Assembly (NCBI GenBank): GCA_002311745.1
Contig: DBZL01000014.1
Span: 124,001-188,000 of the forward strand
Source: Phycisphaerales bacterium UBA1161
Lineage (GTDB): Bacteria > Planctomycetota > Phycisphaerae > Tepidisphaerales > Tepidisphaeraceae
Direction of reading: 5' to 3'
DNA length: 64,000 nt
The notes under the pieces: model-generated
What the model saw: only the letters and a program-made list of their open reading frames with translations
The model's database searches: none
Told to the model about the DNA's origin: nothing
Shown here: positions 23,157 to 40,855 of the stretch, one piece after another
Numbering within the stretch: position 1 is the first letter of the stretch
Layout of the letters: each line of letters begins with the position of its first letter
Made by a program: the position numbers and the translations under genes

Positions 23157-24497
23157 CTAGTGCTGCCAGGTCACCTGCGCGTCGACGGTGGTCAGGGGCG
23201 GGCCGACGTGGATGTCAAGCTGCACCTTGTCCAGTACGACATTGGCGGCATCCTGAACGAACAAGCCGTCATCCGCCTCGATGGTGACGTCGCTGAGCGT
23301 GATGTCGCCGGCCTTCTTTTCCGGCAGGCCCAAAATCCGGCCGGCGTGCACGGCGTGGGTGATTTTCACGCGCTCGATGCGCACGTCGCGCACTTCCGGA
23401 ATCCGTTCGCTGGGCCCCGTCGTCGGCGCGGCACGCGGGCCGACATCCGACTTGACGTTGGCGTTGCCGTTGTAAAGCAGATTGATGTCGATGGCCCGGT
23501 TGACGTTTTTCATGACCAGATCGGAATAGCGGATGTCGTCGACCAGACCACCGCGACCGCGATAGGACTTGATGCGAATGCCGTTGTCGCCTCCGTCGAA
23601 GGTGCATCGGCGGACGATGACGTGGTGCACGCCGCCCGCGGTCGGGCTGCCGATGGAGATGCCGTGGCCGTGCAGGCAGGTGCAGTCCTCGACGATGCAG
23701 TCTTCGGTGCCGCCTTGAGTGCCGTTGAACGCGACGTTGTCATCGCCGATGTCCAGCTCGCACTTGCGGATCACGATCCGGTGTCCGGAGGGATCGATCG
23801 CATCGGTGTTGGGGGCGTCGCTGGGGGCGAAGATGCGGATGTTTTCAATCAGCACGTCCTGGCATTGGCCGGTCGCCAGGTGGAACGTCGGGGAATTGGT
23901 CAGGGTCACGCCGTCGACGTGAATGCGCTGGCATTGCCTGAAAACGACGAGGCGCGGGCGCGGATAGATCAGCCGGCCCGCCGGATAGCGCCGCGCCGCC
24001 TTGTCCGACCAGATCCACCAAATGGCGCCCGATCCGTCGATGGTGCCGCCTCCGGTGATGGCGATGTCGGTGGCGTGCATGGCTGAGATCAGCGGGCTTA
24101 CCTCCTCGCGGGCGTCATCCACCTGGTCCTGCGTCGCCTTGGCGGGATCGGGCAAACCCCAATCGGTCAACTTCTCCGGCGCCTTGATCGTCGCGCCGGC
24201 TTCCAGGTGCAGGTCCATGTGGCTGGTCAGGACAAACGGCAACGTGAAATAAACACCGGCCGGAACAATCAGGCGTCCGCCGCCGGCCTGCTTGATCGCG
24301 TCAACGGCCTTGGCGAAGGCCGCCGTGTTCAGCGTCGCCCCGTCGCCGACGCCGCCGAAGTCCTTCAAATTAAAATCATGCTGCGGAATCACCGGCGGCG
24401 CGGGGTTTACTTCTTCCTGCGGCGCTTCCGCCGTTGCCCCATAGGCCGCCAACCCCCAGAAAAGCACCGCCACAGACACGATCACGACGCGCACCAT
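23157..24497 (-). CDS. GH28 polygalacturonase-like glycoside hydrolase, secreted
   Basis: 446 residues with a signal peptide (MVRVVIVSVAVLFWGLAAYG). A right-handed beta-helix starts near DFGGVGDGATLNTAAF. All GH28 catalytic blocks are seen in order: NTDAID (D232), GDDN (D252, D253), GHGISIGS (H278) and RIK (R308, K310). The enzyme should hydrolyse alpha-1,4-galacturonan or a related pectic chain outside the cytoplasm. AGGAGAG lies before the ATG at 24497; the longer open frame has no signal peptide. No PEP-CTERM or other anchor is present, unlike the two GH28 proteins at 50-54 kb. Confidence 0.9.
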   Translation of the reverse strand: MVRVVIVSVAVLFWGLAAYGATAEAPQEEVNPAPPVIPQHDFNLKDFGGVGDGATLNTAAFAKAVDAIKQAGGGRLIVPAGVYFTLPFVLTSHMDLHLEAGATIKAPEKLTDWGLPDPAKATQDQVDDAREEVSPLISAMHATDIAITGGGTIDGSGAIWWIWSDKAARRYPAGRLIYPRPRLVVFRQCQRIHVDGVTLTNSPTFHLATGQCQDVLIENIRIFAPSDAPNTDAIDPSGHRIVIRKCELDIGDDNVAFNGTQGGTEDCIVEDCTCLHGHGISIGSPTAGGVHHVIVRRCTFDGGDNGIRIKSYRGRGGLVDDIRYSDLVMKNVNRAIDINLLYNGNANVKSDVGPRAAPTTGPSERIPEVRDVRIERVKITHAVHAGRILGLPEKKAGDITLSDVTIEADDGLFVQDAANVVLDKVQLDIHVGPPLTTVDAQVTWQH

Positions 24498-24732
24498 ATC
24501 TCTCCTCGTTTTGCACCAGGACAGCAAAGAAAAGCTTATCGACAGGGCCTGCCGACAAGCCATGGAAGCCGCACAGTTTACACGTCGGCCCGCCTTTGCC
24601 AAGAAATTTGCAGCTTTTCGCCTGTGGCCCGGGACGACCCGAGATGGCAAACGGTGATTCTTCTTGCCACCGGCCAACCGAGCCGGGAAAATATCGCGGC
24701 GTTGGGCGGGCATCTCAGCGGGAAGGCACGAC

Positions 24733-25986
24733 ATGTCTGAGGCGGTTGTAGGATTCTCCTGCGAGGGTTGTGGGCGAACGTACGCGTGGAAGGAGCCGCT
24801 GGCCGGCAAGCGCGTCAAGTGCAAGTGCGGGCAAGTGATAGTTGTTCCCGCCCAGCCGACCCAGCCGCCGCAGCCGCCGCAGGAGCAACCCAGCGAAGAC
24901 GATCTTTATGCTTTGGCAGGCGGCGCCGGCGCCGCGGCCAGGGCGGTGCCAGCGCCGGTCATGGCGACCGCTGCTTCCCCGGCCGCCCGAGCCGCCATCC
25001 CTCTGGGCTACCAGCGCGGCCCCACCGCCCGCGAAATCGAACGATCTTCTTCCAGGGTGCTGATCGATCCACGCCGCGATTATCAGGTTCCCATCGCGCT
25101 ATTGGCGATCGGCGCGATACTCTACATCGGCTACTACGCGATCCACTACAGCCTGAGCCCGCTGGGGATCATGTCGACCGGCATCGGCTTGGCGGTGATG
25201 ACCGTGTTCGAGATGGCGGCGCTGATCGGATTCGCCTTCTTCATCGCCGGGCCGCTGGGCGTCAGTTTCGGCGGCGTGGGCACGGCCATGCTGAAATTGG
25301 CCGCCATCGCCGTCTTCTGCGACGGACTGACCACCTGGGTCGATGGCTTCGTGGCCAAATACTCCGGCGGCTTTGGCGCAGGCATCTTTGGCTACGGCGT
25401 CCTCGGTTTCCCCATCGCCTTAGGCGTTTACTGGAGCCTGCTGATCTACTTGTTCGATATGGACCCCGGCGACTCCTGGATGGTCGTAGTCATTCTGGCC
25501 GTGTTCTACCGAATCCTGCGCATCGTTTTGCTGCTGTTGCTGCTGAAACTGATTCTGAGCCTGGGCGGCGTGGCCGCCTCGACCGTCAGCCTCCCATCCG
25601 CCACCAGCACGCCGGCCGACGAGGAGGTCTCTCTGGCCGAGGAAATCAATGATGCCAAGGAACACGGCATGTTGTGCGAAGCGCGGCAATTCATCCAGGA
25701 CACCGGTCGCGGGCAGGATAGCCCCAGCGTGGAGAAATGGTACGCGGCAGGCTGCAAAAACGTTTGGTACCGCGTCACCAACGATGCCGATCAGAAAGCC
25801 GTGGTGTATGAACTCGTGATGGAACTTCCGACGGATAAAGACGCACGGGCCAAGTGCTACGAGATCGCCAAGGAGTGGTACGACCAGTTTAAGATTTTTC
25901 ACCTTCCGGAAGCGGTTAAGGATAAGGGGAAGCCGTATCTGGAGGTTCCCCTGTCCAGTCCTGCGTCTGCGTATCGCCGCCACTGA
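24733..25986 (+). CDS. Membrane protein with N-terminal zinc ribbon
   Basis: 417 residues. The N-terminus carries a ribbon: CEGC followed about 19 residues later by CKCG. A Pro/Gln-rich linker follows, then about six hydrophobic segments (residues 115-280, Yip1-like in spacing) and a soluble C-terminal domain of about 130 residues. GGAAGG precedes the ATG. The ribbon plus membrane architecture parallels the protein at 5910-7106, where the ribbons are C-terminal. Function unknown. It is convergent with the radical SAM operon, separated by 32 nt. Confidence 0.72.
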   Translation: MSEAVVGFSCEGCGRTYAWKEPLAGKRVKCKCGQVIVVPAQPTQPPQPPQEQPSEDDLYALAGGAGAAARAVPAPVMATAASPAARAAIPLGYQRGPTAREIERSSSRVLIDPRRDYQVPIALLAIGAILYIGYYAIHYSLSPLGIMSTGIGLAVMTVFEMAALIGFAFFIAGPLGVSFGGVGTAMLKLAAIAVFCDGLTTWVDGFVAKYSGGFGAGIFGYGVLGFPIALGVYWSLLIYLFDMDPGDSWMVVVILAVFYRILRIVLLLLLLKLILSLGGVAASTVSLPSATSTPADEEVSLAEEINDAKEHGMLCEARQFIQDTGRGQDSPSVEKWYAAGCKNVWYRVTNDADQKAVVYELVMELPTDKDARAKCYEIAKEWYDQFKIFHLPEAVKDKGKPYLEVPLSSPASAYRRH

Positions 25987-26018: not shown

Positions 26019-26921
26019 TCAACCCCCCAGCCGCATCATCTGCAATGCCTGTGCGAGCGCGGATGGTTTGAGCGCAAGCAGTTGCGATACCTCAACCGCG
26101 CCGGCGTAGCCGCAGGTTTCGCATACCGCCGGATGTTCGACGTCCCGGCAGCAAGAAAAGCTGCGAAGGCTGGTGATGACTTCGACCTGTTCGATCGGCC
26201 GCTTCCAGCGATTCTCGCGCAACGCACGGTACGCCGCATGGGAAAGCGCAATCGGGTAGCCCGATCGCTTCAATCGCCACAGGTCGTCGAGCACTTGGGC
26301 CCGCTGCTTCGGGGAAAAGCCGTATTGGCCAGCGAACTCGGGCCGGTGCGTCAGCAAGTTGCATGCAATCCCGCGGAAAAGCCCCAGCGACGTGATTTCT
26401 TTGACGAATTCTTCGAGATGCCGCGCGTTGGCCTGGCTCAAGGTGATAGATGCGTAGACGCTGCGGCGGCGGGCTTGCTCGACGTTGCGCATGATCAAGT
26501 CCCATGTGCCGCCGCGAATGGCGTCGTGGATGCGCTTGGGTCCGTCGATGGTGATCACATAGCCGCAATGGTCGATGTCCAGCGGAGCCGTGCCGTTGGT
26601 GTAAACGAAAACGCTGAAGAACCCGGTCTGATGCGCGCAATCCACCACGTCGGCAAGTTGATGCAAGCCGTCGCGCCAGAGCGTCGGCTCGCCGCCGGTG
26701 ATGTACAGGAAGCGGTGGCCGCGCCGATAGGCGTCGGCGATCGTGCGCTGCGCCTGCTCAAAGGTGAAATGCGACTGCCCCAGATTTTTGGTCCGACAGT
26801 AGAAGCAGTCCAGGTTGCAGGCATCCGTCATGACCAGCCCGACGAAGAACGGCAATTTCTGCCGCAGTACCAGCAGCCGAAACCCGTAGACGGCGGCGGC
26901 CGCCCATTGTCGAGCGTTCAC
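26019..26921 (-). CDS. Radical SAM protein with C-terminal cysteine cluster
   Basis: 300 residues. The radical SAM site is CNLDCFYC (C35, C39, C42), followed by YITGGEPTLWRDG, which resembles the MoaA/PqqE branch. The C-terminal region has C257, C258, C267 and C270 (SFSCCRDVEHPAVCETCGY), a compact cluster that could hold an auxiliary Fe-S centre as in SPASM or twitch domains, though the spacing is not canonical. The GTG start at 26921 overlaps the preceding gene's TGA as GTGA and has AGGAGG seven bases upstream, so translation is coupled. It is the last gene of the four-gene operon. SPASM-type enzymes often modify peptides, but no precursor peptide gene is visible. Confidence 0.85.
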   Translation of the reverse strand: MNARQWAAAAVYGFRLLVLRQKLPFFVGLVMTDACNLDCFYCRTKNLGQSHFTFEQAQRTIADAYRRGHRFLYITGGEPTLWRDGLHQLADVVDCAHQTGFFSVFVYTNGTAPLDIDHCGYVITIDGPKRIHDAIRGGTWDLIMRNVEQARRRSVYASITLSQANARHLEEFVKEITSLGLFRGIACNLLTHRPEFAGQYGFSPKQRAQVLDDLWRLKRSGYPIALSHAAYRALRENRWKRPIEQVEVITSLRSFSCCRDVEHPAVCETCGYAGAVEVSQLLALKPSALAQALQMMRLGG

Positions 26922-28249
26922 AGCACCACCTCCTGCGGCCAGGCGCTCGATCGGCAGCGGCCCCAGAGATGATCGATGTAGCTCAGAGTGCACAGATTCT
27001 GAAGCCGATGGATCCAATAGGCGCCGCGGTGGGTGATCCGATACCCATCCCTCGTCCGCTTCATCAAGCCCGCCGCTTGCAGCGGAGCGAACGACGGCCC
27101 AAATAGTCTTACCAGCGATTGGTTGGTCCCAAACATTCCACGGAATTCGGCATCGCTTATGAACAACTCGTAGGCGCGCCAGTACACCCAGTACGCCATT
27201 TCCATGCGACGACCCATCGGCATGACCAGCGCGATGGGCCGGCGCCCGGGCAACGCGGATGCATAGGCATCGACATCGAACGTGTTCACGTAGAAATGCG
27301 AGCCGATCATGGACGATGCGCTGGGGCCAAATCCAATGTAATGGTGGCGCGAGACCGAGCTGAATTTTTTATGCGGCGCTTCGATCCAGCTCCACACCGC
27401 GCAGCGGTGCAGGCCGCGCTGTCGGGCGATGCCATCCGTATCGTCGAGCATGGCGCGGATGGATCGGGCCGGCGGCTGCCGGACCCGGGCCAGCCGTTGC
27501 CGACGCCCGAAATCAGAATACGGGAACGAAAACAGCGGGTACGTGCTGAGCTGATGCGCGCCGGCATCCAACACGCGGACAACATCCGCCCTCCACTGTC
27601 GCGGCGTCTGCGTCGGCAAGGCAAACAGCAGGTCGGCATTGACCGTTTCAAATCCCTGCGACCGAGCGCGACGCACGGCATCCAACGCGGTTTGGGCATT
27701 GTGCGTACGGCCGATGAATTGCAGCATCCGATCCGAAGTCGATTCCACACCGATCGAAACCATGTTCACGCCCAGTTCGCGCAGGGCCGCCAAGCAGTGC
27801 GTGTCCATGAAACCGGGATGCAGTTCGACGCAAATATCCCCAATGGGCCCCACCTGGCTCTTGAGACGTCGCAGGATGCGCACCAGGCCGGCCAAGTCCA
27901 CGGTCGGCGTCCCCCCGCCGATGTACAACGAGGATATTGGGGTTCCATTCAGATACGGGGCATACAGTTCGATCTCCCCACACACCGCGCGCTCGTATGC
28001 CTCAAAGAGGGACTGGCTGTAAACGAAGCGGTTGTACGGACAGTACGGACAAAGCTTGCGGCAGAAGGGAACGTGAAGATAAAGGCCCAATGGCCCGAGA
28101 TTGACCGGAAAAGGAACGTCGATCGCAGGGGCCATTTTCAAGCGCCCCCACCGCCCTACAATGGCTCGGCGAACAATCGGCTCCCAAAGCGACGCCCCGA
28201 GCATCGCCCCCATCATACCGCCGGAGACCGGGCCCAACATGACTGCCAC
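26918..28249 (-). CDS. HemN/HemW-like radical SAM protein
   Basis: 443 residues. LYLHVPFCRKLCPYCPYN carries the CxxxCxxC site (C63, C67, C70), followed by SLYIGGGTPT and ELHPG, with GVNMVSIGVES, NADLLFALPTQT and YPLFSFPYS further on: the HemN/HemW order. The C-terminal third is helical and could be the HemW-type domain. True HemN makes protoporphyrinogen; HemW inserts heme; this paralogue is divergent, and its neighbours are not heme genes. The start is uncertain: GTG at 28249 is 4 nt after the preceding stop, ATG at 28240 is also possible. The first 40 residues are not conserved-looking. Confidence 0.82.
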   Translation of the reverse strand: MAVMLGPVSGGMMGAMLGASLWEPIVRRAIVGRWGRLKMAPAIDVPFPVNLGPLGLYLHVPFCRKLCPYCPYNRFVYSQSLFEAYERAVCGEIELYAPYLNGTPISSLYIGGGTPTVDLAGLVRILRRLKSQVGPIGDICVELHPGFMDTHCLAALRELGVNMVSIGVESTSDRMLQFIGRTHNAQTALDAVRRARSQGFETVNADLLFALPTQTPRQWRADVVRVLDAGAHQLSTYPLFSFPYSDFGRRQRLARVRQPPARSIRAMLDDTDGIARQRGLHRCAVWSWIEAPHKKFSSVSRHHYIGFGPSASSMIGSHFYVNTFDVDAYASALPGRRPIALVMPMGRRMEMAYWVYWRAYELFISDAEFRGMFGTNQSLVRLFGPSFAPLQAAGLMKRTRDGYRITHRGAYWIHRLQNLCTLSYIDHLWGRCRSSAWPQEVVL

Positions 28250-28253
28250 ATCG

Positions 28254-30035
28254 TCAGACGCCGGCGGAGGTCGAAGCCACGCGGCGGACGAGTTCGAAAT
28301 TGCATTGGTGGGTTTCGATCTCGCCGCTGCCCGTTCGTTTCATTGCTCCACCGGGGATGAAAGAAAGCAGGATGTGGTTCAGGTCCGGGTTGAGGTCTTC
28401 GTAGCCGGCTTGGAGGAGCATGCGATGGTGCCCGTCGATGATCCGGCTTAGCTCCTCCGACGTGAGCAGGCCCTGTTCATCGGCCTGGCCGGCGCCGATG
28501 GGGCTCCACAGGGCGTCGCTGTTGGGGGCATCCACGTCTTCCAGGCCGCGGAAATATCCCCAGATCGTAACATAGTCGGGGCCGTTGCGCAGCGCGGGGG
28601 TTCCATCGGGCGCCAGAACGCTTTGGAAACGATCGAATCGGCGGCGGTCGGCCGGCGCTGGACGGGCTTCGGCGGAATGGCTCGTCACGTAGATCGCCCT
28701 GGGGTAAACGGTGCCAATCCCCTGCCTCTGCATCTCCAGGGCGAGGGCGAATTTTTCAAACGGGCTGTTGTAGCCATGGCCGATCATGGCCTTGGCCGCT
28801 TCATCGGAGGCGTCGGGCGCGGGAACATCGCCGACGCGCGAAACCTTCCAGACCAGGTGGACGTTGTCCTTGGCTCGCGTGTACCACGTTCGCCCGGAAG
28901 CGGACAGAGGCATGTGTTTGCTTCGCCAGCGCTCGGGGAGGAAAAATTCGAAAAGCCGCGGATCTCTGCCGACGACCCAGAGGGTTCCACCGGTGCTTTC
29001 GGTCTGGCCCCAGATATAGTCAACGCCCAGGACGTTGGTCTGCACGAGATGCGGGGGAAGGTCGGGGACCCGTTTGGGATGGAAGCGATCGCGCTGCAGC
29101 GAAAGATATTTGTTGCGGGAGGCGCTGGTGACGGTGCGTTCATGCTCCGGCGTGCGCGCCAGCAGCTCATAATCGACGATGGCATAAGCCAGTTGTCCGT
29201 TTTTTCGCGACAGCAGGCCGCCGTGAGAAACTCGGAGAATCGCGTGCGCGGGCTTGTGATCGATAACGGTAAAGCCTTTCTGGTTCAATTCCTCGAGCAC
29301 CCGTGTGGTCAACGCCGACAGCGAATGCTCCGAGCTGGGGCCCGCAAACAGGTTGCGTTTATGGGCTTCCACGGCGTCGATCCCTTCGATCCAGCCATAC
29401 AACATGATGTAGGACCGCAGAATGTCGATCTCGACGCTGGCGTAGCGCTTGACTTTGCTGAGGATCTTGTGGCGTGAGCGGCCGGTCTGCCAGAGCTGCA
29501 TGCGCTCGGGGGGCACGTAAATGGCCAGCGGCTTCTGCGTGAAGATTTTGATCCGGCGCGGCCCGAAGGCGCCGGCCCGCAATTCCTCGAGCAGCGAGAA
29601 TTCCTCGAAAGGCGTGTTGAAGTCGGCCTTGATGGCATGGCTGAGGGTGAAGGTGTCGATCGGAACATCCTGCCCAACGCGGGACCACTTGACGACCAGC
29701 TTGATGCTGGAACGAGGCCGGCGCCCAATGGGTCGGGTGGCCAGCAGATAAACGGTGCCGGTGCCCAGGAGGGGAATGCGGTTTTTGGCGAACCACTCGG
29801 CCTCATACCAGTTTTCCGGCTTGAGATGTTCCAGGAAAGGGATGCCATGCTCGGTGACATAGAGGTCGCCGCCGTCGTCGGTGCGCAGGCGGAGATAGTT
29901 GACCCCCATCAGGCGCAGGAAGGTGGCGCGCGATGGCAGAAGTCCAGTTGCGGGGCGGCCGGCAATGGCCCGCTGCGGCGGCGTGTCGACGGCCGCCGAA
30001 GTCCCCCCGCCACGGGCGAGGTTTTCTTCCTCCAT
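28254..30035 (-). CDS. Uncharacterised protein with two tandem protein-kinase-like domains
   Basis: 593 residues, no signal or membrane segment. Two halves align by eye. Half 1: LYVTEHGIPFLEHLKPENW (58-76), IKLVVKWSRVG (K116), FNTPFEEFSLLEEL (139-152), YIMLYGWIEG, DHKPAHAIL (259-267), AIVDYELL (D288). Half 2: LWVVGRDPRLFEFFLPERW, NVHLVWKVSRVG (K397), YNSPFEKFALALEM, YVTIWGYFRG, DLNPDLNHILL (547-557), QCNFELV. The Lys, Glu, Asp-x-x-x-x-His/Asn and Asp-Tyr-Glu order resembles the kinase beta3 Lys, helix C Glu, catalytic loop and DFG region. In half 2 the DFG-like Asp is replaced by Asn, suggesting a pseudokinase half. This kinase reading is my inference. It is second in the operon, 9 nt after the GT87 gene. 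Confidence 0.6.
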   Translation of the reverse strand: MEEENLARGGGTSAAVDTPPQRAIAGRPATGLLPSRATFLRLMGVNYLRLRTDDGGDLYVTEHGIPFLEHLKPENWYEAEWFAKNRIPLLGTGTVYLLATRPIGRRPRSSIKLVVKWSRVGQDVPIDTFTLSHAIKADFNTPFEEFSLLEELRAGAFGPRRIKIFTQKPLAIYVPPERMQLWQTGRSRHKILSKVKRYASVEIDILRSYIMLYGWIEGIDAVEAHKRNLFAGPSSEHSLSALTTRVLEELNQKGFTVIDHKPAHAILRVSHGGLLSRKNGQLAYAIVDYELLARTPEHERTVTSASRNKYLSLQRDRFHPKRVPDLPPHLVQTNVLGVDYIWGQTESTGGTLWVVGRDPRLFEFFLPERWRSKHMPLSASGRTWYTRAKDNVHLVWKVSRVGDVPAPDASDEAAKAMIGHGYNSPFEKFALALEMQRQGIGTVYPRAIYVTSHSAEARPAPADRRRFDRFQSVLAPDGTPALRNGPDYVTIWGYFRGLEDVDAPNSDALWSPIGAGQADEQGLLTSEELSRIIDGHHRMLLQAGYEDLNPDLNHILLSFIPGGAMKRTGSGEIETHQCNFELVRRVASTSAGV

Positions 30036-30044
30036 GAGCGCAGC

Positions 30045-31331
30045 CTAGAACGGCCCATCGCCCTCGTCAAATGCAATCTCCCGGGGCGCCGAGGTGGAGC
30101 TTGGCGAGCGCCGTAGCCGGGCGGGGGGATCTGCCGGGTGAGAAAATTGCAATTTAATGAGCAGCGCCATGAGCACCACGGTCGCCGCCGGCTGGGGGCC
30201 GAGGCCGCGAAACAGCGTACCGAAGCGAAACCACAGGGATGCTTCCGTGGCCGCGAAGAATGCCGCCAGCGTCAGGGCGCCCATCCGCCACGCCCGGCCA
30301 TGCGATTGCCACAGCGCATCCACCACCAGCCACGCCACGGCCGGGGCCAGCATGATATAGGTCACGCCTTCAGTGGCCGGGCCAAACGCCATCATCCATC
30401 CCGCAGCCAAACCGTACAGAATCCCCAGCCGAAGCCGCCAATCGCTGGCGCCGCGCCGCAGCCCGGCAACCACCGCCGCGATCAATCCCGCCGCGACCAG
30501 TTGCACAATAAGGTAAGCCTTGGAAGAAACGTAAATCCCCAGGACGCCCAAGGGCAGGCGAACGTCACGATACCATTTGCCCAGCGGCAAATACTGCTTG
30601 GCCATCGCCAAATGCTGACGATCGTTAAGGGTCATCAGGTGAAACCATCGAGGGTATTGGTGCCACACGTAACTGGGATTCTGCATGACCAGCGGCGCCG
30701 CCAAGCCCACCAATAGCGCCACCGCGCAGCGCCACGCCAGCTTCCGCGGCCACATCAGAATGCACAAAAGCATCAATGCGATCGGATAGATTTTTAGTAG
30801 CACTGCCCCCGCCAGGCATATTGCGGCGAAATTCCATCGCGACTGAGGCAGCGCCGCGACGGCCAGCAGCATCAAACCCGTCACCAGAGCGTTGACCTGA
30901 AGATCGAACAAACCGCTCCACGTCAACGCCGCCAACACGAGCCAGTAGATCGCCGCAGCGCGGGATTCCCGCCGCACCAAGACCACTCGATCCAGAAAGG
31001 CGAACGCCCCCGCCATGAGCACCACGACATTGACACCGCGAACCAGGAAGCTGCCCAATATTTCCGGGAGCTTAGCCAGCGGCGTCAGGCCCGCCGCGAT
31101 CAGCGGCGCATACCGAAAGCCGTCGATGCTGTCCCAGGCGAAATACAGATTGCTGCCCGCCACCCAGTTCCGGCCGGCCTGTGCATAAATGTCGTAAAGC
31201 CCCCGATGTCGCGGCCAATGCACCAGGGCCGCGCGCCCCAGCGCGATGCCCACCATGGCATACCAGACCACGCGGGCCGCGAACGTAAGCGCTGGCGAAT
31301 CGGTAGTTGAGGCCAATCGATTCGAATGCAA
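30045..31331 (-). CDS. GT87-like polyprenyl-phosphate-dependent membrane glycosyltransferase
   Basis: 428 residues with about ten to twelve membrane segments. The first periplasmic loop has HRGLYDIYAQAGRNW, with the acidic residue expected of GT-C enzymes, followed by FRYAPLIAAG, the DUF2029/GT87 pattern (Y-P-P/Y-A-P then L). Such enzymes transfer a sugar from a lipid carrier on the outer face of the membrane. The reading frame opens with a TTG at 31331, with AAGGGGG upstream; no better ATG is near, so the start is uncertain. First gene of the four-gene operon, 9 nt before the kinase-like gene. Confidence 0.75.
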   Translation of the reverse strand: MHSNRLASTTDSPALTFAARVVWYAMVGIALGRAALVHWPRHRGLYDIYAQAGRNWVAGSNLYFAWDSIDGFRYAPLIAAGLTPLAKLPEILGSFLVRGVNVVVLMAGAFAFLDRVVLVRRESRAAAIYWLVLAALTWSGLFDLQVNALVTGLMLLAVAALPQSRWNFAAICLAGAVLLKIYPIALMLLCILMWPRKLAWRCAVALLVGLAAPLVMQNPSYVWHQYPRWFHLMTLNDRQHLAMAKQYLPLGKWYRDVRLPLGVLGIYVSSKAYLIVQLVAAGLIAAVVAGLRRGASDWRLRLGILYGLAAGWMMAFGPATEGVTYIMLAPAVAWLVVDALWQSHGRAWRMGALTLAAFFAATEASLWFRFGTLFRGLGPQPAATVVLMALLIKLQFSHPADPPARLRRSPSSTSAPREIAFDEGDGPF

Positions 31332-33109: not shown

Positions 33110-33223
33110 TTCCTTTGTTTGGTCCGCTGCGTGAGTGGAGGGTACGATCGCCGGGGTTTCATCTTTTTTCAAAAATGATTTTGTGAAACCCTACGCGTTC
33201 GAGAGCCCACTTACGGTTTGCCC

Positions 33224-33790
33224 ATGCGTGCAGAGGCGCTATCAGACGATGCGGTGCCGACACTCGATCGTCTGCGCGCCCAGGAGGAACAGGCGTTTAC
33301 GTGGCTCGTGAAGCGGACGCAGAGAATAGTCCTGGGACTGGGACAGTCGCTGGGACTTCGCGGCCCAGACCTGGATGATGCATCCGCGGAAACTTTTCTG
33401 GCGGTCTACGAAGCGCTGCCCTCATTCGAAGGGCGATCGGCCGTTACGACTTGGGCCTATCAGATCGCTTGTCGGACGCTCAATCGCTTTCGAACACGGC
33501 TGGCAAAGACGAAAACCGCACCATGGAAGGAGGATGTTCATCCTGAGCGTCATGCTGCGTCGGCGGAGTCGATCCTGGAAGAAAGCGAGTTGAACAAAAC
33601 GATCTGGGCGACGGTCGCGTCGCTCGATCCACGCAGCGCGATGGCGGTGGAGCTACACTATCGCAGAGGGATGGCCATTGCGGACGTGGCCGAAGCGCTT
33701 GACTGTCCACTTGGGACGGTGAAGACATTGATGTTCCGAGCAAGAGCGGAGCTGCGGAAGCGGTTGATTCAAGCGGAGGTGCAACCATGA
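33224..33790 (+). CDS. RNA polymerase ECF-type sigma factor
   Basis: 188 residues. The sigma region 2 includes DDASAETFLAVYEALPSFEGRS followed by TWAYQIACRTLNRFR, and region 4 has LDPRSAMAVELHYRRGMAIADVAEALDCPLGTVK with the helix-turn-helix. This is the group IV sigma layout. It directs RNA polymerase to specific promoters, usually under control of an anti-sigma factor encoded next to it. The downstream gene overlaps by ATGA. The ATG at 33224 was taken over a TTG at 33218. The divergent membrane gene may be in the same regulon. Confidence 0.92.
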   Translation: MRAEALSDDAVPTLDRLRAQEEQAFTWLVKRTQRIVLGLGQSLGLRGPDLDDASAETFLAVYEALPSFEGRSAVTTWAYQIACRTLNRFRTRLAKTKTAPWKEDVHPERHAASAESILEESELNKTIWATVASLDPRSAMAVELHYRRGMAIADVAEALDCPLGTVKTLMFRARAELRKRLIQAEVQP

Positions 33791-34290
33791 ACGAATCACG
33801 AGCGCGTGATGATGCTGAACTGGATGCGCTGATCCGCTCGGCGATGGCTCAACGACCGGAACCCGCGGAAGATATGAATTTGGCACGGCGTGTCATCGTG
33901 ATGGCGAACGACAAAGCGCGCGTTCGCTTGCCCGCTGGCGATCATGCCCGACAGCGGGTGCGGCGGGTCGCATCGTGCCTGGCGATGGTCGCCATCGCGA
34001 TTATTTTGGCTAGTGGTTTGCGTCGACTAGCGGCGATTGATGCCGTCAGTGGGGTCGAGGAAACGTCAATCTCGCTGTCGACGTCAACCTCATCCAGCGA
34101 TGAGGTCAGCCCGATTCTCTTTGTCGGCTGTGTCGCGCTCGTGGCCACGCTGGTCTATCTAGCCGTCCGAGGGTCAATCGAATCGGACGAAGGCATGCTT
34201 TGGCGCTGGGATGTGGAGTATCTTCCGGCCCGAAAAGGCCGCACAACTCGACCCCATCGAATCGCTGGCTTGGGATTAGAAACGTCATGA
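33787..34290 (+). CDS. Putative anti-sigma factor (two-span membrane protein)
   Basis: 167 residues, overlapping the sigma gene stop as ATGA. The N-terminal 75 residues are cytoplasmic and helical (DDAELDALIRSAMAQRPEP, MNLARRVIVMAN). Two hydrophobic segments follow (about residues 60-80 and 102-120) separated by a Ser/Thr-rich loop. Position and architecture are those of anti-sigma factors, but no zinc-binding HxxxCxxC motif is present. The functional call is by context only. Confidence 0.6.
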   Translation: MNESRARDDAELDALIRSAMAQRPEPAEDMNLARRVIVMANDKARVRLPAGDHARQRVRRVASCLAMVAIAIILASGLRRLAAIDAVSGVEETSISLSTSTSSSDEVSPILFVGCVALVATLVYLAVRGSIESDEGMLWRWDVEYLPARKGRTTRPHRIAGLGLETS

Positions 34291-35449: not shown

Positions 35450-38400
35450 TCATCTGGGCCGCAAATAGGGTTTTCTCGGTCTGCCGATGTTCGAGATGAT
35501 CTGAACCAAGTCATCGTAATCCAGTTCGTTCGGCCGCACCGGTTGCAGCAACTCATCCTCGATACGATCCCGGACATCGACGGAAAGGTCTGAATCCGCC
35601 ACCATCCGCAGCACGTTCCTCAACTGCTTGAGTCGATTCAATGTCCGTACCGCCCCGCGATCGGTCGAAGTTTCCAGGAAGTACTCGAACGACTCCGGGT
35701 CAACTAACTCACCGTGGCCGGCCGCGCGATAGGCGTCCAGTGCCTGACTAAAGTCTTGCCGGATCAACTCGGTCTTCTGAGGATCGATGACGTTGGAATA
35801 AGTCGGCCGCCCATTGGCGTCGATGTCGACCACTTGGCAGAACATGGACTGCAATTCCTCAGTGATAGTTGCTGTAGTGGCCTTAGACAGGCCGGTGATT
35901 TCTCCCGACCTTCCCTGCAACAGGTCAAAGGCGTTGCTGAGGCTGACCGCGCCGCCCGGTGCATACAGATGGGTCGCGCCCGCTACGGGCGGCTGTGGCT
36001 GTGGCAGCGATATTTCCAGCGGCTGGGGAATGTACGACTTCGCTTCCAGGTCCAGAGGCGTGAAGTCGGAGGTGACCAGCGTCGTGCCAAACGCCGGCGC
36101 ATACAGCGACACCGTGTAGCCGGGCACCGTGCCCGTCCCGAAGAGGGTCGCAAAGCGCGGATTCGATCCCGTGCCTTGCACGGTGATGCGGCTGGTGTCG
36201 AACGTCATGTTGGAACCCAACGTAACAACGTCGACACCCTCCGGCGGATTCCCCGGGGAGGAAACCAGCTCGCTGTTCAGGGCGCCCGACGCCGTCAGCA
36301 ATTGACCGCTGGGCCGGAGTAGAAATACGACCGTCCCGGCTGTCACGGTCAGATTCCCGCCGGTGTTGATGTCCCCCAGCGTCGCCGTTCCGGAACCGAC
36401 GTTGATGCTCAGGTTTCCCAAAACCGTGATCTTTTCCTCATGGCCGACGGTCAATCCCTTCGCCTGGATCGTCACGCTGTTTCCGCCCTGGGGGTTGTCC
36501 GCGATCGTGGCGACGACGGGCACCGATTGCCGGCCCGCCAGCGCCAGATCGATCACGCCCGCCGTCGACGTCAGATTGCCTCCCAAAACGATCACGCCGG
36601 TTGGCTCATAGTCGCCGGCCCCTAAGCTCCCCAGAGTCACCCCGCTGTTGGGCTGCAACGAGAGTAATCCTGTCGTCGTAATATCGGAGGCAAAGATACT
36701 GGTGCCGCTGGTCACGGTGAGTGTATTCACCCTGGTGGGTCCGCCGAAGAACACGCTGCCGCTGCCGGAACTGGTGTCGAGGGTCAGAGCGAATAACCCG
36801 GAGGTTGCGCCAGCCAGATCGATGTAGCCACCGGTGCTTTGGAAAACGGTGTCCGTCTTCAGCACGACCGGAGTGTCGAAGGTCAGATTTCCCGTCGTTT
36901 TTACGCTGGGACTTGCGGTCCCAACGATGTCCAAAATGGTCTTTCCTTGCGAACCGCTGCCCTTGGGAGTGGACGTGGTCGTTAATGTGGCCAATGCGGT
37001 CGTGGAGCCGACATAGTCCGCACCCCCGCTGCCGAACGTAATGTTGCCGCCCGAAGCATTGGTCAGTGCGCCGGTGCCGGCAAAAGTGTAGGAAGCGTCG
37101 ATGCTGACGTCCACGCCGTCGCCGTCCACGGTCGAGTTGAACGTGACCGAGCCCGGGCCCGTCGCATTGCCCGTGGCGACCAACTGCGTAGCGTCCGCGA
37201 AGCTCACGGGGTTGTTGTACGTCTGCGCCAGCGTCGTCGTCATGGCGGGAGAGTTGGTGTCGCTCATGGCGAAATACGTGGTGCCGTCGGCCGATGTGCC
37301 GGTCGCCGTGGTGGTCACGCTTCGCAATGGGTGCACCGAACCGACATAGGCCGCGGTGGTATTTCCGAAGATGATGTTCCCCGGGCCGCCGCTAAATGAC
37401 GTGTCGACCCACAGGTTCCACGGACCGTTGCCGTCGCCGTCCACCGTCCCGGCAAAGCCGACGGTTCCGCCGGCCGTGGTCGTCAATTGCGTGTCGGCCT
37501 TGAGCACAACAGCATTGAAGTACGTCTGGTTGCCTGCGGTCTGCACGGCCGGCTGGCCGGGACCGCTGCCGGAAATATCGAAGATCGTCTCGCCTGCTTT
37601 GGCCGAGCTGCTGTCGGCGGTGGTGGTGAGACTGGCCAGGGCGTTGACGCCGCCCACAACAGCGGCCCCGCCATTTCCGAACTGGATATTGCCCGCGTTG
37701 CTTGCGGTGGACGAGGTGTCGATAGTGAGGTTCCAGGGCCCGTTGCCATCGCCGTTCACCGTCGAATAGAACGTCACGCTCCCACCGTCGTTGGCCGTCA
37801 ATTGGGTGTCCGCGCCGAGCACGACCGCATTGTTGTACGTTTGACTGCCGGTCGTCGTCACCGACGGGGTGGACGACGAACCGGTCGCCGTGAATTGCGT
37901 TGTGCCGCCGCTGATGCCGGACGCCGGATCGTTGATGGTCAGGGCCGTCAGCGCCGTGGAACTGCCCACCAAACCGGCGAATGCCGTTGGCCCAGCGGTG
38001 TCGACGGTCAGAGCAAAGGAGCCGTCGATCGTCGCATTGAATGTGATGGCGCCCGCGCTGGTGGAGGTAAAAACGGTATTGGCGCCCAGAGTCACGTCGG
38101 TGTTGTAGGTCTGTACACCGGTGCTTAGCACCGAAGGAGCGATGCTTGTCCCCGCCGCTTTCATTTCGAGGGTGCCGCCATTGATGAGCGTGGCCGGTTC
38201 ATCGGTCATCACGCTGGCCAGGGGAGTCGTGCCCCCTAACAAGGCTGCGAAGGTTATGGATCCCGTCGTGTTGATCGACAGTGCGAAGCCGCCGTTGATG
38301 GTTGAATTGAAGGTAATGGCGCCGCCGCCGACGTCGTCGAAGGCGGTCTCGTTATTCAGGACGATCGGAGTGTTGTAGGTCTGTCCCGCAGTGGTCAATA

Positions 38401-40855
38401 TGGTCGGATGGGTGGCGATCCCCGCAAAGTTGCATTGCACCGGCCCGCCGACGATGCCCGAGGCGGGATCATCGATGGTCAGGGTGGTGAGCTGGACGTT
38501 TTGTCCCACATCGTCGACAAACGTCGTTGCCCCGGCGGTATTCACGGTCAAGGCAAAAGCGCCGTCGACGGTTGATTTGAACGTGATGGGGCCGCCGCCG
38601 GTGTCGGCCAGAGTCGTATTGGCGCCCAGCATGATCGCGTTGTTGTAGGTCTGTCCGGCGGTGGTCACCACGGACGGACTGGCCGTTGTCCCCGCGGCGT
38701 TGAACTGGACTCGTCCGCCGCTGATGCCCGACGCCGGATCGTTGATCGTCAAACTCGTCAACGGCGTCGTGCCCCCGACCAAACCGCCGAACACCGCGTT
38801 CCCGCCCGTATTCACCGTCAGAGCGAAGGCCCCGTCCACGGTCGAATTGAAGGTGATGTCGCCGCCGCCGCTGTCGGTCAGGGCCGTGTCCGCGGCAAGC
38901 GTCACCGGATCGCTGTAGGTCTGATAGCCGCTGGTGCTGACCGCGGGGCTGGCCGAACTGGATGAGACCGCCAAGACGATTTTGTGGCTGCTTGTGCTGG
39001 AAATCGCCACACCGCCGCTGCCCGCATGGAGCGCCGCGCCGATCGTCACGACGCCGCTGTGGTTGATGGTCATATCGGCGGAGGATGTGATCGCCCCGCC
39101 GATGTTGTCGAAATTCACCCCAGTGCTGGTGAACGGCCCGCCGTTGACCGGGCCGACGATGTCCACGTCCCCGGCGGAATTGCTCAGTTGCACGCTGCCG
39201 GTGGTCGTCAAATTCGCCGCCGTCAGCGATCCGGAACTGCCCAGCGTGCCGACGCTCAGCGTGATCTGTCCGCTGCCGGCGTTGATGCTGTTCGAGCCGT
39301 CCATCGAAATTACCGCGGCGCCGCTGTCGCGATTGGCGGCGGTGGCCGTGTTGTCGTTGGCGCTGAGCGTCACATCTCCGTCGGTGGTGGTGATGCTCCT
39401 GCCCGATGCGAAGACGATGCTCCGCCCCGCCTGCATGGTCAGCGACACGCCGGACGTGGAGAGGTTGATCGACTGGTTGATGTCGATGTCGGTGTTGGCC
39501 TGAAGAACGACGTTGGCGCTGGCGCTGTTGATCGCGGAGGCGTCGATGGTTTCATCGGCCGTGTTGCTGAAGCTGCTGACGTCGCCCAGCGCGGCGGTGC
39601 CGCCGCTGGCGATGGTGATGGTGTGCGGGTCCAGCAGCAACGTTCCCAGTTTTCCGTGAGGAGCGGCCGCATCCACGGCGCCGGCGAACGCCAGCGCTTG
39701 GGCGCTGGAGACTTCCGACCAACCCCCGTTGCCCCATGCCGCTCCGCCGCGAACGGAGATGGCGCCGTCGAATACCGTTTGCGCGTCCGACCAGACGACC
39801 ACCGTCCCGCCATCGCCGCCGGCCAGGGCGTCAGCATGGATGCTCGACTTGTTGTCCACGAGGGTGATCGAGGCGGTTGAATCCGTTCCAGACCCGTGCG
39901 GGCCGCCGCCCACCCACACCGTCCCGCCGCCGGAGCTGCCGGAGGCATCGATCGTCGCGTCGCTTAGCGCCACCCGCCCGCCCAGCACCCGCACGGTCCC
40001 GCCCTTGCCGCCCGGGTTTGACGCGTCGAGCGTTCCCGACACTTGCACGGTCCCCTCGCCGTCGAGGGTGATACTGGCGGCCTTGGTCTGACCGGTATGG
40101 CGAATCGCGATGGAATATAGATCCCCGGCGGACATGTCGACCGCCTGTGCCGCGACGTTGCCGCCGTTCTGGACGCCCACGCCGCCAGAGGCCGCGGAAT
40201 TCGCCCCCGCGTCCACTTTCACCATGAGCCCGCCCCCCCGGTCCCCCAGGTAAACGTCATCGTCCGCGACCATCGCCACCGTACCTGAACCGGCGATGAT
40301 GGAGCCCCCGTTGACGACGTGCAGGCCGACCAGATATACATCGGCCGCCGTGATCTTGCCCTGGTTGACGACCGATCCCTGGCTGGCCGTGAAGTGGTTG
40401 ATGCCGGCCAGGGCGTCCTGATCCGACAGATGCGCCGCGGCGGCATAAAGCTGGCCAACATTGATGATCGAGTTGGCGCCGAACATGACGCCCGCCGGAT
40501 TCACCAGATAAACGGTTCCGTTGGCCGTCAGCGTCCCGTCGATGTGCGACGGCGAGGCCTTGATGATGCGATTCAGCACCCAACTTTCTGAACCCGGTTG
40601 AACGAATCGCACCGACGTCCCGGCTGCGACGTTGAATTGGGTGTAGTCGATGATCGTGCGGTTGGCCGCGTGGATGATCGTGCTCGTCCCGGATTGGGTG
40701 AACTGCGCCGATCCGCTCACCACGTGATCGACCTGCAAATTCCCGCCCAGCGCCGCTCGCGCCCCCGCCAAAACTGCCGACGAAATCAGCATCAAGGCCG
40801 TCACCCGGCGCCGATGACGCGGCTTGCTCCCAACTTCACGCAATTCAGCGGCCAT
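35450..40855 (-). CDS. Large two-partner-secretion exoprotein (TpsA, filamentous haemagglutinin-like)
   Basis: 1801 residues. A long signal peptide (MAAELREVGSKPRHRRRVTA then LMLISSAVLAGARAALG) is followed by the haemagglutination-activity TPS domain, recognisable from NRIIKASPSHIDGTLTANG, VYLVNPAGVMFGANSIINVG and the N-terminal strands. A long beta-helix follows, rich in Gly, Ser, Thr, Ala and Asn. From about residue 645 to 1010 it is made of 90-residue tandem repeats (DNA period 270 nt), and longer related repeats continue to about 1250. The last 150 residues are different: helical, charged, ending in RKPYLRPR. It should be exported by the partner TpsB 32 nt upstream, as adhesin, toxin or surface fibre. 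No recognisable toxin domain. Confidence 0.9.
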   Translation of the reverse strand: MAAELREVGSKPRHRRRVTALMLISSAVLAGARAALGGNLQVDHVVSGSAQFTQSGTSTIIHAANRTIIDYTQFNVAAGTSVRFVQPGSESWVLNRIIKASPSHIDGTLTANGTVYLVNPAGVMFGANSIINVGQLYAAAAHLSDQDALAGINHFTASQGSVVNQGKITAADVYLVGLHVVNGGSIIAGSGTVAMVADDDVYLGDRGGGLMVKVDAGANSAASGGVGVQNGGNVAAQAVDMSAGDLYSIAIRHTGQTKAASITLDGEGTVQVSGTLDASNPGGKGGTVRVLGGRVALSDATIDASGSSGGGTVWVGGGPHGSGTDSTASITLVDNKSSIHADALAGGDGGTVVVWSDAQTVFDGAISVRGGAAWGNGGWSEVSSAQALAFAGAVDAAAPHGKLGTLLLDPHTITIASGGTAALGDVSSFSNTADETIDASAINSASANVVLQANTDIDINQSINLSTSGVSLTMQAGRSIVFASGRSITTTDGDVTLSANDNTATAANRDSGAAVISMDGSNSINAGSGQITLSVGTLGSSGSLTAANLTTTGSVQLSNSAGDVDIVGPVNGGPFTSTGVNFDNIGGAITSSADMTINHSGVVTIGAALHAGSGGVAISSTSSHKIVLAVSSSSASPAVSTSGYQTYSDPVTLAADTALTDSGGGDITFNSTVDGAFALTVNTGGNAVFGGLVGGTTPLTSLTINDPASGISGGRVQFNAAGTTASPSVVTTAGQTYNNAIMLGANTTLADTGGGPITFKSTVDGAFALTVNTAGATTFVDDVGQNVQLTTLTIDDPASGIVGGPVQCNFAGIATHPTILTTAGQTYNTPIVLNNETAFDDVGGGAITFNSTINGGFALSINTTGSITFAALLGGTTPLASVMTDEPATLINGGTLEMKAAGTSIAPSVLSTGVQTYNTDVTLGANTVFTSTSAGAITFNATIDGSFALTVDTAGPTAFAGLVGSSTALTALTINDPASGISGGTTQFTATGSSSTPSVTTTGSQTYNNAVVLGADTQLTANDGGSVTFYSTVNGDGNGPWNLTIDTSSTASNAGNIQFGNGGAAVVGGVNALASLTTTADSSSAKAGETIFDISGSGPGQPAVQTAGNQTYFNAVVLKADTQLTTTAGGTVGFAGTVDGDGNGPWNLWVDTSFSGGPGNIIFGNTTAAYVGSVHPLRSVTTTATGTSADGTTYFAMSDTNSPAMTTTLAQTYNNPVSFADATQLVATGNATGPGSVTFNSTVDGDGVDVSIDASYTFAGTGALTNASGGNITFGSGGADYVGSTTALATLTTTSTPKGSGSQGKTILDIVGTASPSVKTTGNLTFDTPVVLKTDTVFQSTGGYIDLAGATSGLFALTLDTSSGSGSVFFGGPTRVNTLTVTSGTSIFASDITTTGLLSLQPNSGVTLGSLGAGDYEPTGVIVLGGNLTSTAGVIDLALAGRQSVPVVATIADNPQGGNSVTIQAKGLTVGHEEKITVLGNLSINVGSGTATLGDINTGGNLTVTAGTVVFLLRPSGQLLTASGALNSELVSSPGNPPEGVDVVTLGSNMTFDTSRITVQGTGSNPRFATLFGTGTVPGYTVSLYAPAFGTTLVTSDFTPLDLEAKSYIPQPLEISLPQPQPPVAGATHLYAPGGAVSLSNAFDLLQGRSGEITGLSKATTATITEELQSMFCQVVDIDANGRPTYSNVIDPQKTELIRQDFSQALDAYRAAGHGELVDPESFEYFLETSTDRGAVRTLNRLKQLRNVLRMVADSDLSVDVRDRIEDELLQPVRPNELDYDDLVQIISNIGRPRKPYLRPR
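37831..38920 (-). repeat. 270-nt tandem repeats inside tpsA
   Basis: The anchor words TGTTGTAGGT or close variants occur at 37831, 38101, 38371, 38641 and 38911, exactly 270 nt apart. Each unit codes for 90 residues with the pattern ITFNSTVDGAFALTVNT, LTINDPASGISGG and TTAGQTYN. Units beyond 37831 in the direction of the stop codon are longer (about 300-315 nt), reaching near 37100. Exact period with diverged sequence shows old duplication under length constraint, as expected for a beta-helix repeat. Confidence 0.9.

What the first reader, a model, noticed from the sequence alone, without database searches (positions are those of the whole stretch)
26019..31331. Four-gene operon joining a GT87-like glycosyltransferase, a double kinase-like protein and two radical SAM proteins
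The genes are packed in one orientation: 9 nt separate the first two, 4 nt the next two, and the last two overlap by GTGA with an AGGAGG site in front. Translation is therefore almost certainly coupled. The combination (membrane glycosyltransferase, kinase-like protein, HemN-like and PqqE/MoaA-like radical SAM proteins) does not match a pathway I know. It could build or modify a cofactor, peptide or lipid-linked glycan. It is the strongest candidate for an undescribed system in the window.
Basis: partly seen in the sequence, partly recalled or inferred. Interest (0 to 1): 0.8.

Follow-up and report, generated by a model that had tools for sequence, protein, structure and literature searches.

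The report
Radical-enzyme pair beside PEPCK-linked kinase-like gene
Four tightly packed bacterial genes that look like one new pathway turn out to be separate pieces, but one of them belongs to a large unnamed family of double kinase-like proteins that elsewhere travels with a central-metabolism enzyme, PEP carboxykinase, and may be its regulator.

Summary
The four-gene run (26019-31331, minus strand) is real, but it is not a conserved system. None of 80 loci of the second gene (KIN) carries the other three nearby. Of 41 relatives, only the own genome holds both KIN and the GT87 gene.

The parts: (1) A HemN-like (HEMN) and a MoaA/SkfB-like (RSAM2) radical SAM gene form a sparse pair: HEMN lies beside RSAM2 in 5 of 5 genomes with a close RSAM2, and in none of 3 with a distant one. 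(2) KIN is a tandem protein-kinase-like protein. Domain 1 keeps kinase-type residues; domain 2 is degenerate.

Elsewhere KIN sits with GTP-dependent PEP carboxykinase (PckG). In 240 Nitrospirota genomes all 31 with KIN have PckG, against 6 of 209 without; both share contig and strand in 30 of 31. One-domain relatives lie beside argJ in 4 of 4. Against this: KIN is adjacent to PckG in 0 of 17 sampled Verrucomicrobiota, and in this genome it is near neither PckG.

Best reading: KIN regulates the PEP-oxaloacetate node (inferred, untested); the radical SAM pair's substrate is unknown.

The parts
30045..31331 (-). GT87-like membrane glycosyltransferase gene (TTG start as listed)
   Evidence: PF09594 38.8 bits, cut-off 25; relatives in 5 of 40 other related genomes, 35-40% identity
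28254..30035 (-). KIN: 593-aa tandem protein-kinase-like protein
   Evidence: no Pfam/NCBIfam family at E 1, no PDB sequence match; at least 1982 homologues; AlphaFold2 pLDDT 78.6, pTM 0.73
29136..29921 (-). KIN domain 1 (about residues 39-300), kinase-like with K116, E144/E145, D259-x-K261-P262-x-H264, D288
28275..28943 (-). KIN domain 2 (about residues 365-587), degenerate kinase-like repeat
   Evidence: hhalign of domain 1 against domain 2: probability 99.6, E 4.2e-24; Asn opposite D288 and no DxKP
26918..28249 (-). HEMN: HemN-like radical SAM gene; start more likely at 28204 than 28249
   Evidence: PF04055 76.9 bits; alignment of 20 sequences; start check
28040..28063 (-). HEMN CX3CX2C radical SAM motif (residues 63-70)
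   Evidence: invariant; LYxHxPFCxxxCxxC in 117 of 120 homologues
26019..26921 (-). RSAM2: MoaA/SkfB-like radical SAM gene (GTG start)
   Evidence: PF04055 57.1 bits; AlphaFold2 pLDDT 89.4; nearest BlsE, SkfB, SuiB, viperin
26112..26153 (-). RSAM2 C-terminal CC-x8-CxxC, putative extra Fe-S cluster site (residues 257-270)
   Evidence: C257, C258, C267, C270 invariant in 25 sequences; CCR...CxxCG pattern in 119 of 120 homologues
26918..26921 (-). GTGA overlap of HEMN stop and RSAM2 start
   Evidence: sequence; a 4-nt overlap also in Nitrospirota locus L116
26929..26934 (-). AGGAGG ribosome-binding-site-like hexamer before RSAM2
   Evidence: sequence

Best explanation
The packed run is an assembly of independent pieces specific to this lineage, not one conserved pathway. 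(A) HEMN and RSAM2 are a coupled two-enzyme radical SAM unit found sparsely in several phyla. HEMN probably does HemN-like (class-C-type) radical chemistry and RSAM2, with a likely extra Fe-S cluster, a second step on the same unknown small-molecule or lipid substrate (inferred). (B) KIN is a tandem kinase/pseudokinase-like protein whose family partner, above all in Nitrospirota, is GTP-dependent PEP carboxykinase (PckG). Most likely mechanism: domain 1 binds a nucleotide and modifies PckG (phosphorylation first choice) or controls it by binding, and domain 2 is a regulatory pseudokinase; the result is control of flux between PEP and oxaloacetate. (C) GT87 is a separate glycosyltransferase. 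Shown here: the module structure, fold resemblance, internal repeat, residue conservation and PckG linkage. Inferred: catalytic activity, target, direction of control, and that the window's KIN keeps this role although it is not beside PckG.
For: Modules: 0 of 80 KIN loci with the other three genes; KIN in 6 and GT87 in 6 of 41 relatives; only the own genome in both; RSAM2 in 4 of 343 Planctomycetota incl. own; RSAM2 in 4 of 46 KIN genomes, the two close ones on other contigs than KIN; shared contig lengths HEMN x RSAM2 10, KIN x HEMN 0, KIN x RSAM2 1 = own. Pair: HEMN upstream on the same strand in 5 of 5 genomes with close RSAM2. KIN fold and repeat; residues: (DxKPxHx[IV] in 119 of 120 homologues). 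PckG: 15 of 81 loci, 31 of 31 KIN genomes among 240 Nitrospirota against 6 of 209 without KIN, 30 of 31 on one contig and strand, 22 within 200 nt; both gene orders occur; pyruvate carboxylase B, malate dehydrogenase and malic enzyme neighbour KIN in one further locus each. One-domain relatives beside argJ in 4 of 4.
Confidence: 0.5

Rival explanations
1. The four genes are one functional pathway newly assembled in this lineage: KIN activates a substrate, the radical SAM pair modifies it, and GT87 glycosylates it at the membrane.
For: Tight co-directional packing. Nearest metagenomic relatives could not be read as contigs, so a recent local origin is not excluded.
Against: No second genome with the set. 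Contigs of close HEMN/RSAM2 homologues do not recur in the KIN list (listed hits only).
Confidence: 0.1
2. KIN has the kinase fold but is not a protein kinase: it could transfer AMP, phosphorylate a small metabolite, or only sense a nucleotide (GTP/ATP ratio) for PckG.
For: His in place of the usual Asn of the catalytic loop (H264 invariant); no sequence match to described kinase families at E 1; kinase-fold non-protein-kinases are among the structural matches (WaaP, APH-like, IucC/DesD).
Against: Most top structural matches are protein kinases; partners differ between the two forms (PckG, ArgJ), which fits a protein target better than one fixed metabolite.
Confidence: 0.35
3. The KIN-PckG linkage is a neighbourhood inherited by descent, without functional meaning.
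For: Most linked cases are one Nitrospirota clade in the tree, and the tree's label count does not rule out a single origin with losses. No adjacency in the 17 sampled Verrucomicrobiota.
Against: In the 240-genome sample KIN is never found without PckG. Both gene orders and five phylum-level groups (Nitrospirota, Latescibacterota, Raymondiibacteriota, two Verrucomicrobiota loci) counting names given by the records; three other loci neighbour related carbon-node enzymes.
Confidence: 0.15
4. HEMN (with RSAM2) is a menaquinone-type methylase of the MenK/MqnK class.
For: Best NCBIfam match PRK08629 (157.6 bits), which I equate from memory with the Cj0363c type placed in the MenK clade in PMC10320005 (section read); NxFxxxxY in 119 of 120 and GxxFxxxYxGGGT in 62 of 120 homologues.
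Against: 157.6 bits is far under the cut-off of 355. Of the six motifs, YFxxxRxE, RxSxGxQxFxxxxL and QxTxYPLx are in 0 of 120 and the first is never matched in full. No quinone gene recognised by eye beside the pair in the loci read.
Confidence: 0.15

Closest known systems
HemN-like radical SAM subgroups (HemN, HemW, HutW/ChuW, MenK/MqnK, NosN/NocN)
   Same: HEMN matches HemN (1olt, E 2.4e-41) and NocN (E 1.3e-27) in sequence and PRK08629, HutW and HemW models below their cut-offs.
   Different: No fourth cysteine (0 of 120), no HemN GPRxTSYPT (0 of 120), no HemW HNxxYW (0 of 120), three of six methylase motifs absent; paired with a second radical SAM gene.
SkfB / BlsE / SuiB / viperin-type radical SAM enzymes
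   Different: About 300 aa, own C-terminal CC-x8-CxxC, and all NCBIfam models far below cut-off.
Ser/Thr protein kinases and tandem kinase-pseudokinase proteins (e.g. JAK)
   Same: Both KIN halves align to kinase structures; best VIA row is a JAK dimer chain over both halves, but with rmsd 16.6.
   Different: No sequence match to kinase families or PDB kinases; active-type domain first, degenerate domain second; DxKPxH in place of the usual DxKPxN (recalled).
AceK-type control of a carbon branch point (isocitrate dehydrogenase kinase/phosphatase; recalled, not compared here)
   Same: Would work alike: a kinase-fold regulator encoded beside a central-metabolism gene.
   Different: No comparison was run; here the partner gene is GTP-PEP carboxykinase and the protein is a tandem repeat.

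Membership tests
Protein kinase fold (KIN) | Kinase-like three-dimensional fold | tested here: met
Protein kinase fold (KIN) | Lys, Glu, catalytic Asp and metal-binding Asp in domain 1 | tested here: met
   K116, E144/E145, D259, K261, D288 invariant in 27 sequences; DxKPxHx[IV] in 119 of 120. Their equation with the kinase residues is my reading.
Protein kinase fold (KIN) | Sequence match to a described kinase family | tested here: not met
   No Pfam or NCBIfam family at E 1; no PDB chain at E 1 with the profile.
Protein kinase fold (KIN) | Phosphotransfer activity | not testable with these tools
   needs biochemistry
Radical SAM superfamily (HEMN, RSAM2) | CX3CX2C motif and PF04055 above cut-off | tested here: met
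   76.9 and 57.1 bits against 29.5; motif invariant.
HemN coproporphyrinogen dehydrogenase | CX3CX2CXC and GPRxTSYPT | tested here: not met
   0 of 120 homologues for each (motifs from PMC10320005).
HemW | HNxxYW | tested here: not met
   0 of 120.
MenK/MqnK menaquinone methylases | Six signature motifs | tested here: not met
   YFxxxRxE, RxSxGxQxFxxxxL, QxTxYPLx 0 of 120; full LYxHxPFCxxxCxxCxF 0 of 120; GxxFxxxYxGGGT 62 of 120; NxFxxxxY 119 of 120.
SPASM/twitch-type radical SAM enzymes (RSAM2) | Auxiliary Fe-S cluster cysteines at the C-terminus | tested here: inconclusive
   Four invariant Cys (CC-x8-CxxC) but no SPASM family match above cut-off; cluster not shown.
RiPP maturation cluster | Adjacent precursor-peptide gene | tested here: inconclusive
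   No recurring small neighbour in five loci, but ORFs under 60 aa not examined.
GT87 | PF09594 above the curated cut-off | tested here: met
   38.8 bits against 25.

The most novel reading that the evidence does not exclude
KIN belongs to an unnamed superfamily of enzyme-dedicated kinase-fold regulators in bacteria. The two-domain form (active kinase plus pseudokinase) controls GTP-PEP carboxykinase and so the flux between PEP and oxaloacetate; the one-domain form controls ArgJ in arginine synthesis. Each is typically encoded beside its target, and some lineages, the window's among them, keep the regulator without the linkage.
Probability: 0.35. Interest if true: 0.8.

Novelty: new variant of a known kind. 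Interest (0 to 1): 0.57.

Why it matters
A dedicated kinase-fold regulator of bacterial PEP carboxykinase would be a new layer of control at the junction of glycolysis, gluconeogenesis and the TCA cycle. The family is large (at least 1982 homologues), reaches many poorly cultured phyla and had no Pfam domain in any of the 120 listed hits, so naming it would annotate many 'hypothetical proteins'. The PckG and argJ neighbourhoods give ready-made pairs for testing. The HEMN-RSAM2 pair adds an uncharacterised radical SAM unit that fails the signature tests of the described HemN-like groups tried here.

Tried and rejected
Four-gene system: rejected as a conserved unit. HemN, HemW and MenK as names for HEMN: signature tests failed. 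RiPP cluster: no recurring precursor candidate seen, but ORFs under 60 aa not examined. Viral contigs with the HEMN alignment: 29 pattern matches, none a relative. Promoters and terminators: 1 found against a shuffled mean of 2.2, and 6 against 6.6. KIN-PckG adjacency as a general rule: not supported in Verrucomicrobiota.

In the titles and abstract starts listed I saw no PckG-linked kinase-like family. PMC12599244 (bacterial pseudokinases): a term search found no mention of carboxykinase, tandem, Planctomyc-, Verrucomicrob-, Nitrospir- or metabolic enzyme; the text was not read. PMC10320005: passages and one section read. PMC13386864: passages only. The library holds open-access papers only, so this does not show that nothing is in print.

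Not done: PHROGs and PADLOC libraries were not searched; complexes were not predicted; genomes of the metagenomic HEMN/RSAM2 relatives were not readable.
Full report
What is there. The window lies in a Phycisphaerae draft genome (G000:C26; 79 contigs, 79.5% complete; the class is inferred from its nearest named KIN relatives). Four minus-strand genes follow one another: GT87 31331-30045, KIN 30035-28254, HEMN 28249-26918 and RSAM2 26921-26019. GT87 and both radical SAM genes pass Pfam cut-offs; KIN has no Pfam, NCBIfam or PDB sequence match. The 9-nt gap, the GTGA overlap and the AGGAGG are as stated. The KIN-HEMN gap is probably 49 nt rather than 4, because HEMN homologues in the alignment mostly begin near residue 16 or later of the listed ORF. 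Promoter- and terminator-like sites are not above shuffles.

Is it a system? A scan of genome contigs with a KIN alignment found 216 relatives and kept the best 80, with up to 10 kb on each side, many cut by contig ends. None of the 80 has a relative of GT87, HEMN or RSAM2 at E 1e-5. Of 41 related genomes, KIN is in 6 and a GT87 relative in 6; the own genome is the only one in both lists. RSAM2's best match in the other 40 is E 1.2e-9. HEMN has matches in 36 of 41, but the best outside the own genome is 35% identical and has no RSAM2, KIN or GT87 within the 19 kb read (L109). Of 343 Planctomycetota genomes only 4, the own one included, hold RSAM2 at E 1e-25. Of 46 KIN-bearing genomes (46 of the 80 loci were given) 4 hold an RSAM2 relative at E 1e-25, and in the two close cases it lies on another contig than KIN. 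Among listed hits of the protein searches, HEMN and RSAM2 share 10 contig lengths, KIN and HEMN none, and KIN and RSAM2 only the own record (120, 120 and 82 of 120 rows compared). No genome searched other than the own one was seen to hold the four-gene unit.

The radical SAM pair. In the five genomes with close RSAM2 relatives (own, G244, G160, G403, G419) HEMN lies upstream on the same strand, with a 4-nt overlap again in the Nitrospirota locus L116 and a gap of 0.6-1.1 kb in L106. Three more distant RSAM2 relatives (G072, G418, G383; 28-35% identity) have no HEMN in the stretch held. HEMN is HemN-like (1olt E 2.4e-41, NocN E 1.3e-27). Across 120 homologues it lacks the fourth cysteine, a HemN and a HemW signature, and three of six menaquinone-methylase motifs, with the first never complete (motifs from PMC10320005). 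RSAM2 models well (pLDDT 89.4) as a radical SAM enzyme nearest BlsE, SkfB, SuiB and viperin, with an invariant C-terminal CC-x8-CxxC that I infer to hold an extra cluster. No other neighbour is shared among the five loci compared. The substrate is unknown.

KIN. The AlphaFold2 model (27 sequences, pLDDT 78.6, pTM 0.73) resembles protein kinases in both halves, with middling scores. The two halves are homologous (hhalign probability 99.6, E 4.2e-24). Domain 1 has invariant K116, E144/E145, D259-x-K261-P262-x-H264 and D288, which I read as the kinase Lys, Glu, catalytic loop and metal-binding Asp. Domain 2 has no DxKP and has Asn opposite D288. The window's KIN groups with five other Planctomycetota KINs at full support, so it looks like a resident gene.

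KIN and PEP carboxykinase. In 81 KIN loci (80 plus L006) PckG lies next to KIN on the same strand in 15, three of them cut by contig ends (L037, L053, L067), and in one (L078) with a nucleoside-diphosphate-kinase-like gene between. PckG is upstream in Nitrospirota and Latescibacterota and downstream in Raymondiibacteriota and two Verrucomicrobiota loci. Its identity was checked against NCBIfam or Pfam in five of the 15; the others rest on BLAST to a PckG of L063. Three further loci have pyruvate carboxylase B (L073), malate dehydrogenase (L012, divergent) or malic enzyme (L061, divergent) next to KIN. On the tree the PckG-linked rows lie in several parts, but the label count, made against the other labelled rows only, does not exclude one origin with losses. 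In one sample of 240 Nitrospirota genomes PckG is in 37 and KIN in 31: both 31, PckG alone 6, KIN alone 0, neither 203. In 30 of the 31 both are on one contig and strand, 22 within 200 nt and 26 within 1 kb, measured between match ends; in G609 they are on different contigs. The Fisher p of 2e-33 ignores kinship.

Results against this. In 308 Verrucomicrobiota genomes KIN is in 22 (4 of them one-domain forms) and PckG in 271; all 22 have PckG, which is not significant (p 0.09), and in the 17 whose PckG place was listed none is adjacent (5 of 22 had no listed place). In the 41 relatives all 6 KIN genomes have PckG, but so do 30 of the 35 others. The own genome has two PckG genes, on contigs C33 and C46, while KIN is on C26. 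In 66 of the 81 loci no PckG neighbour was seen.

One-domain relatives. Four of the 22 Verrucomicrobiota hits match domain 1 only (ORFs of 306-356 aa), and all four lie directly upstream of, or overlap, an ArgJ gene. That the family attaches to different metabolic enzymes favours a regulatory role over one fixed enzymatic step; this is inference.

Verdict. The valuable part is KIN: an unnamed, widespread tandem kinase-like family tied to GTP-PEP carboxykinase in Nitrospirota and in scattered loci elsewhere. Regulation of PckG by KIN is my best mechanism, with a non-kinase activity of the same fold as the chief rival.

Noticed in passing
L132 3551-4393 (-), L133 3815-4762 (+), L134 3913-4848 (-), L135 3844-4761 (-): One-domain relatives of KIN, each directly upstream of or overlapping an ArgJ gene in Verrucomicrobiota.
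   Followed up: partly
L078 5218-5955: A nucleoside-diphosphate-kinase-like gene stands between PckG and KIN in a Nitrospirota locus, which fits a link to GTP supply.
   Followed up: no
L072 10001-13530: Two KIN genes in tandem in a Fibrobacter-type genome.
   Followed up: no
G000:C33:20751-21821 (-) and G000:C46:37470-38540 (+): The window's own genome has two GTP-PEP carboxykinase genes; an Rrf2-like regulator ORF (recognised by eye) lies beside the first.
   Followed up: no
window 35450-40855 (-): 1801-aa protein with a two-partner-secretion (TPS) domain, a likely filamentous-haemagglutinin-type surface protein.
   Followed up: no
window 33218-34290 (+): A sigma-70-type (ECF-like) factor gene followed at once by a small membrane-protein-like ORF without a Pfam match, perhaps an anti-sigma factor.
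   Followed up: no
window 23157-24824 (-): GH28 pectinase-like gene downstream of the run, on the same strand beyond a convergent unknown gene at 24664-25986.
   Followed up: no
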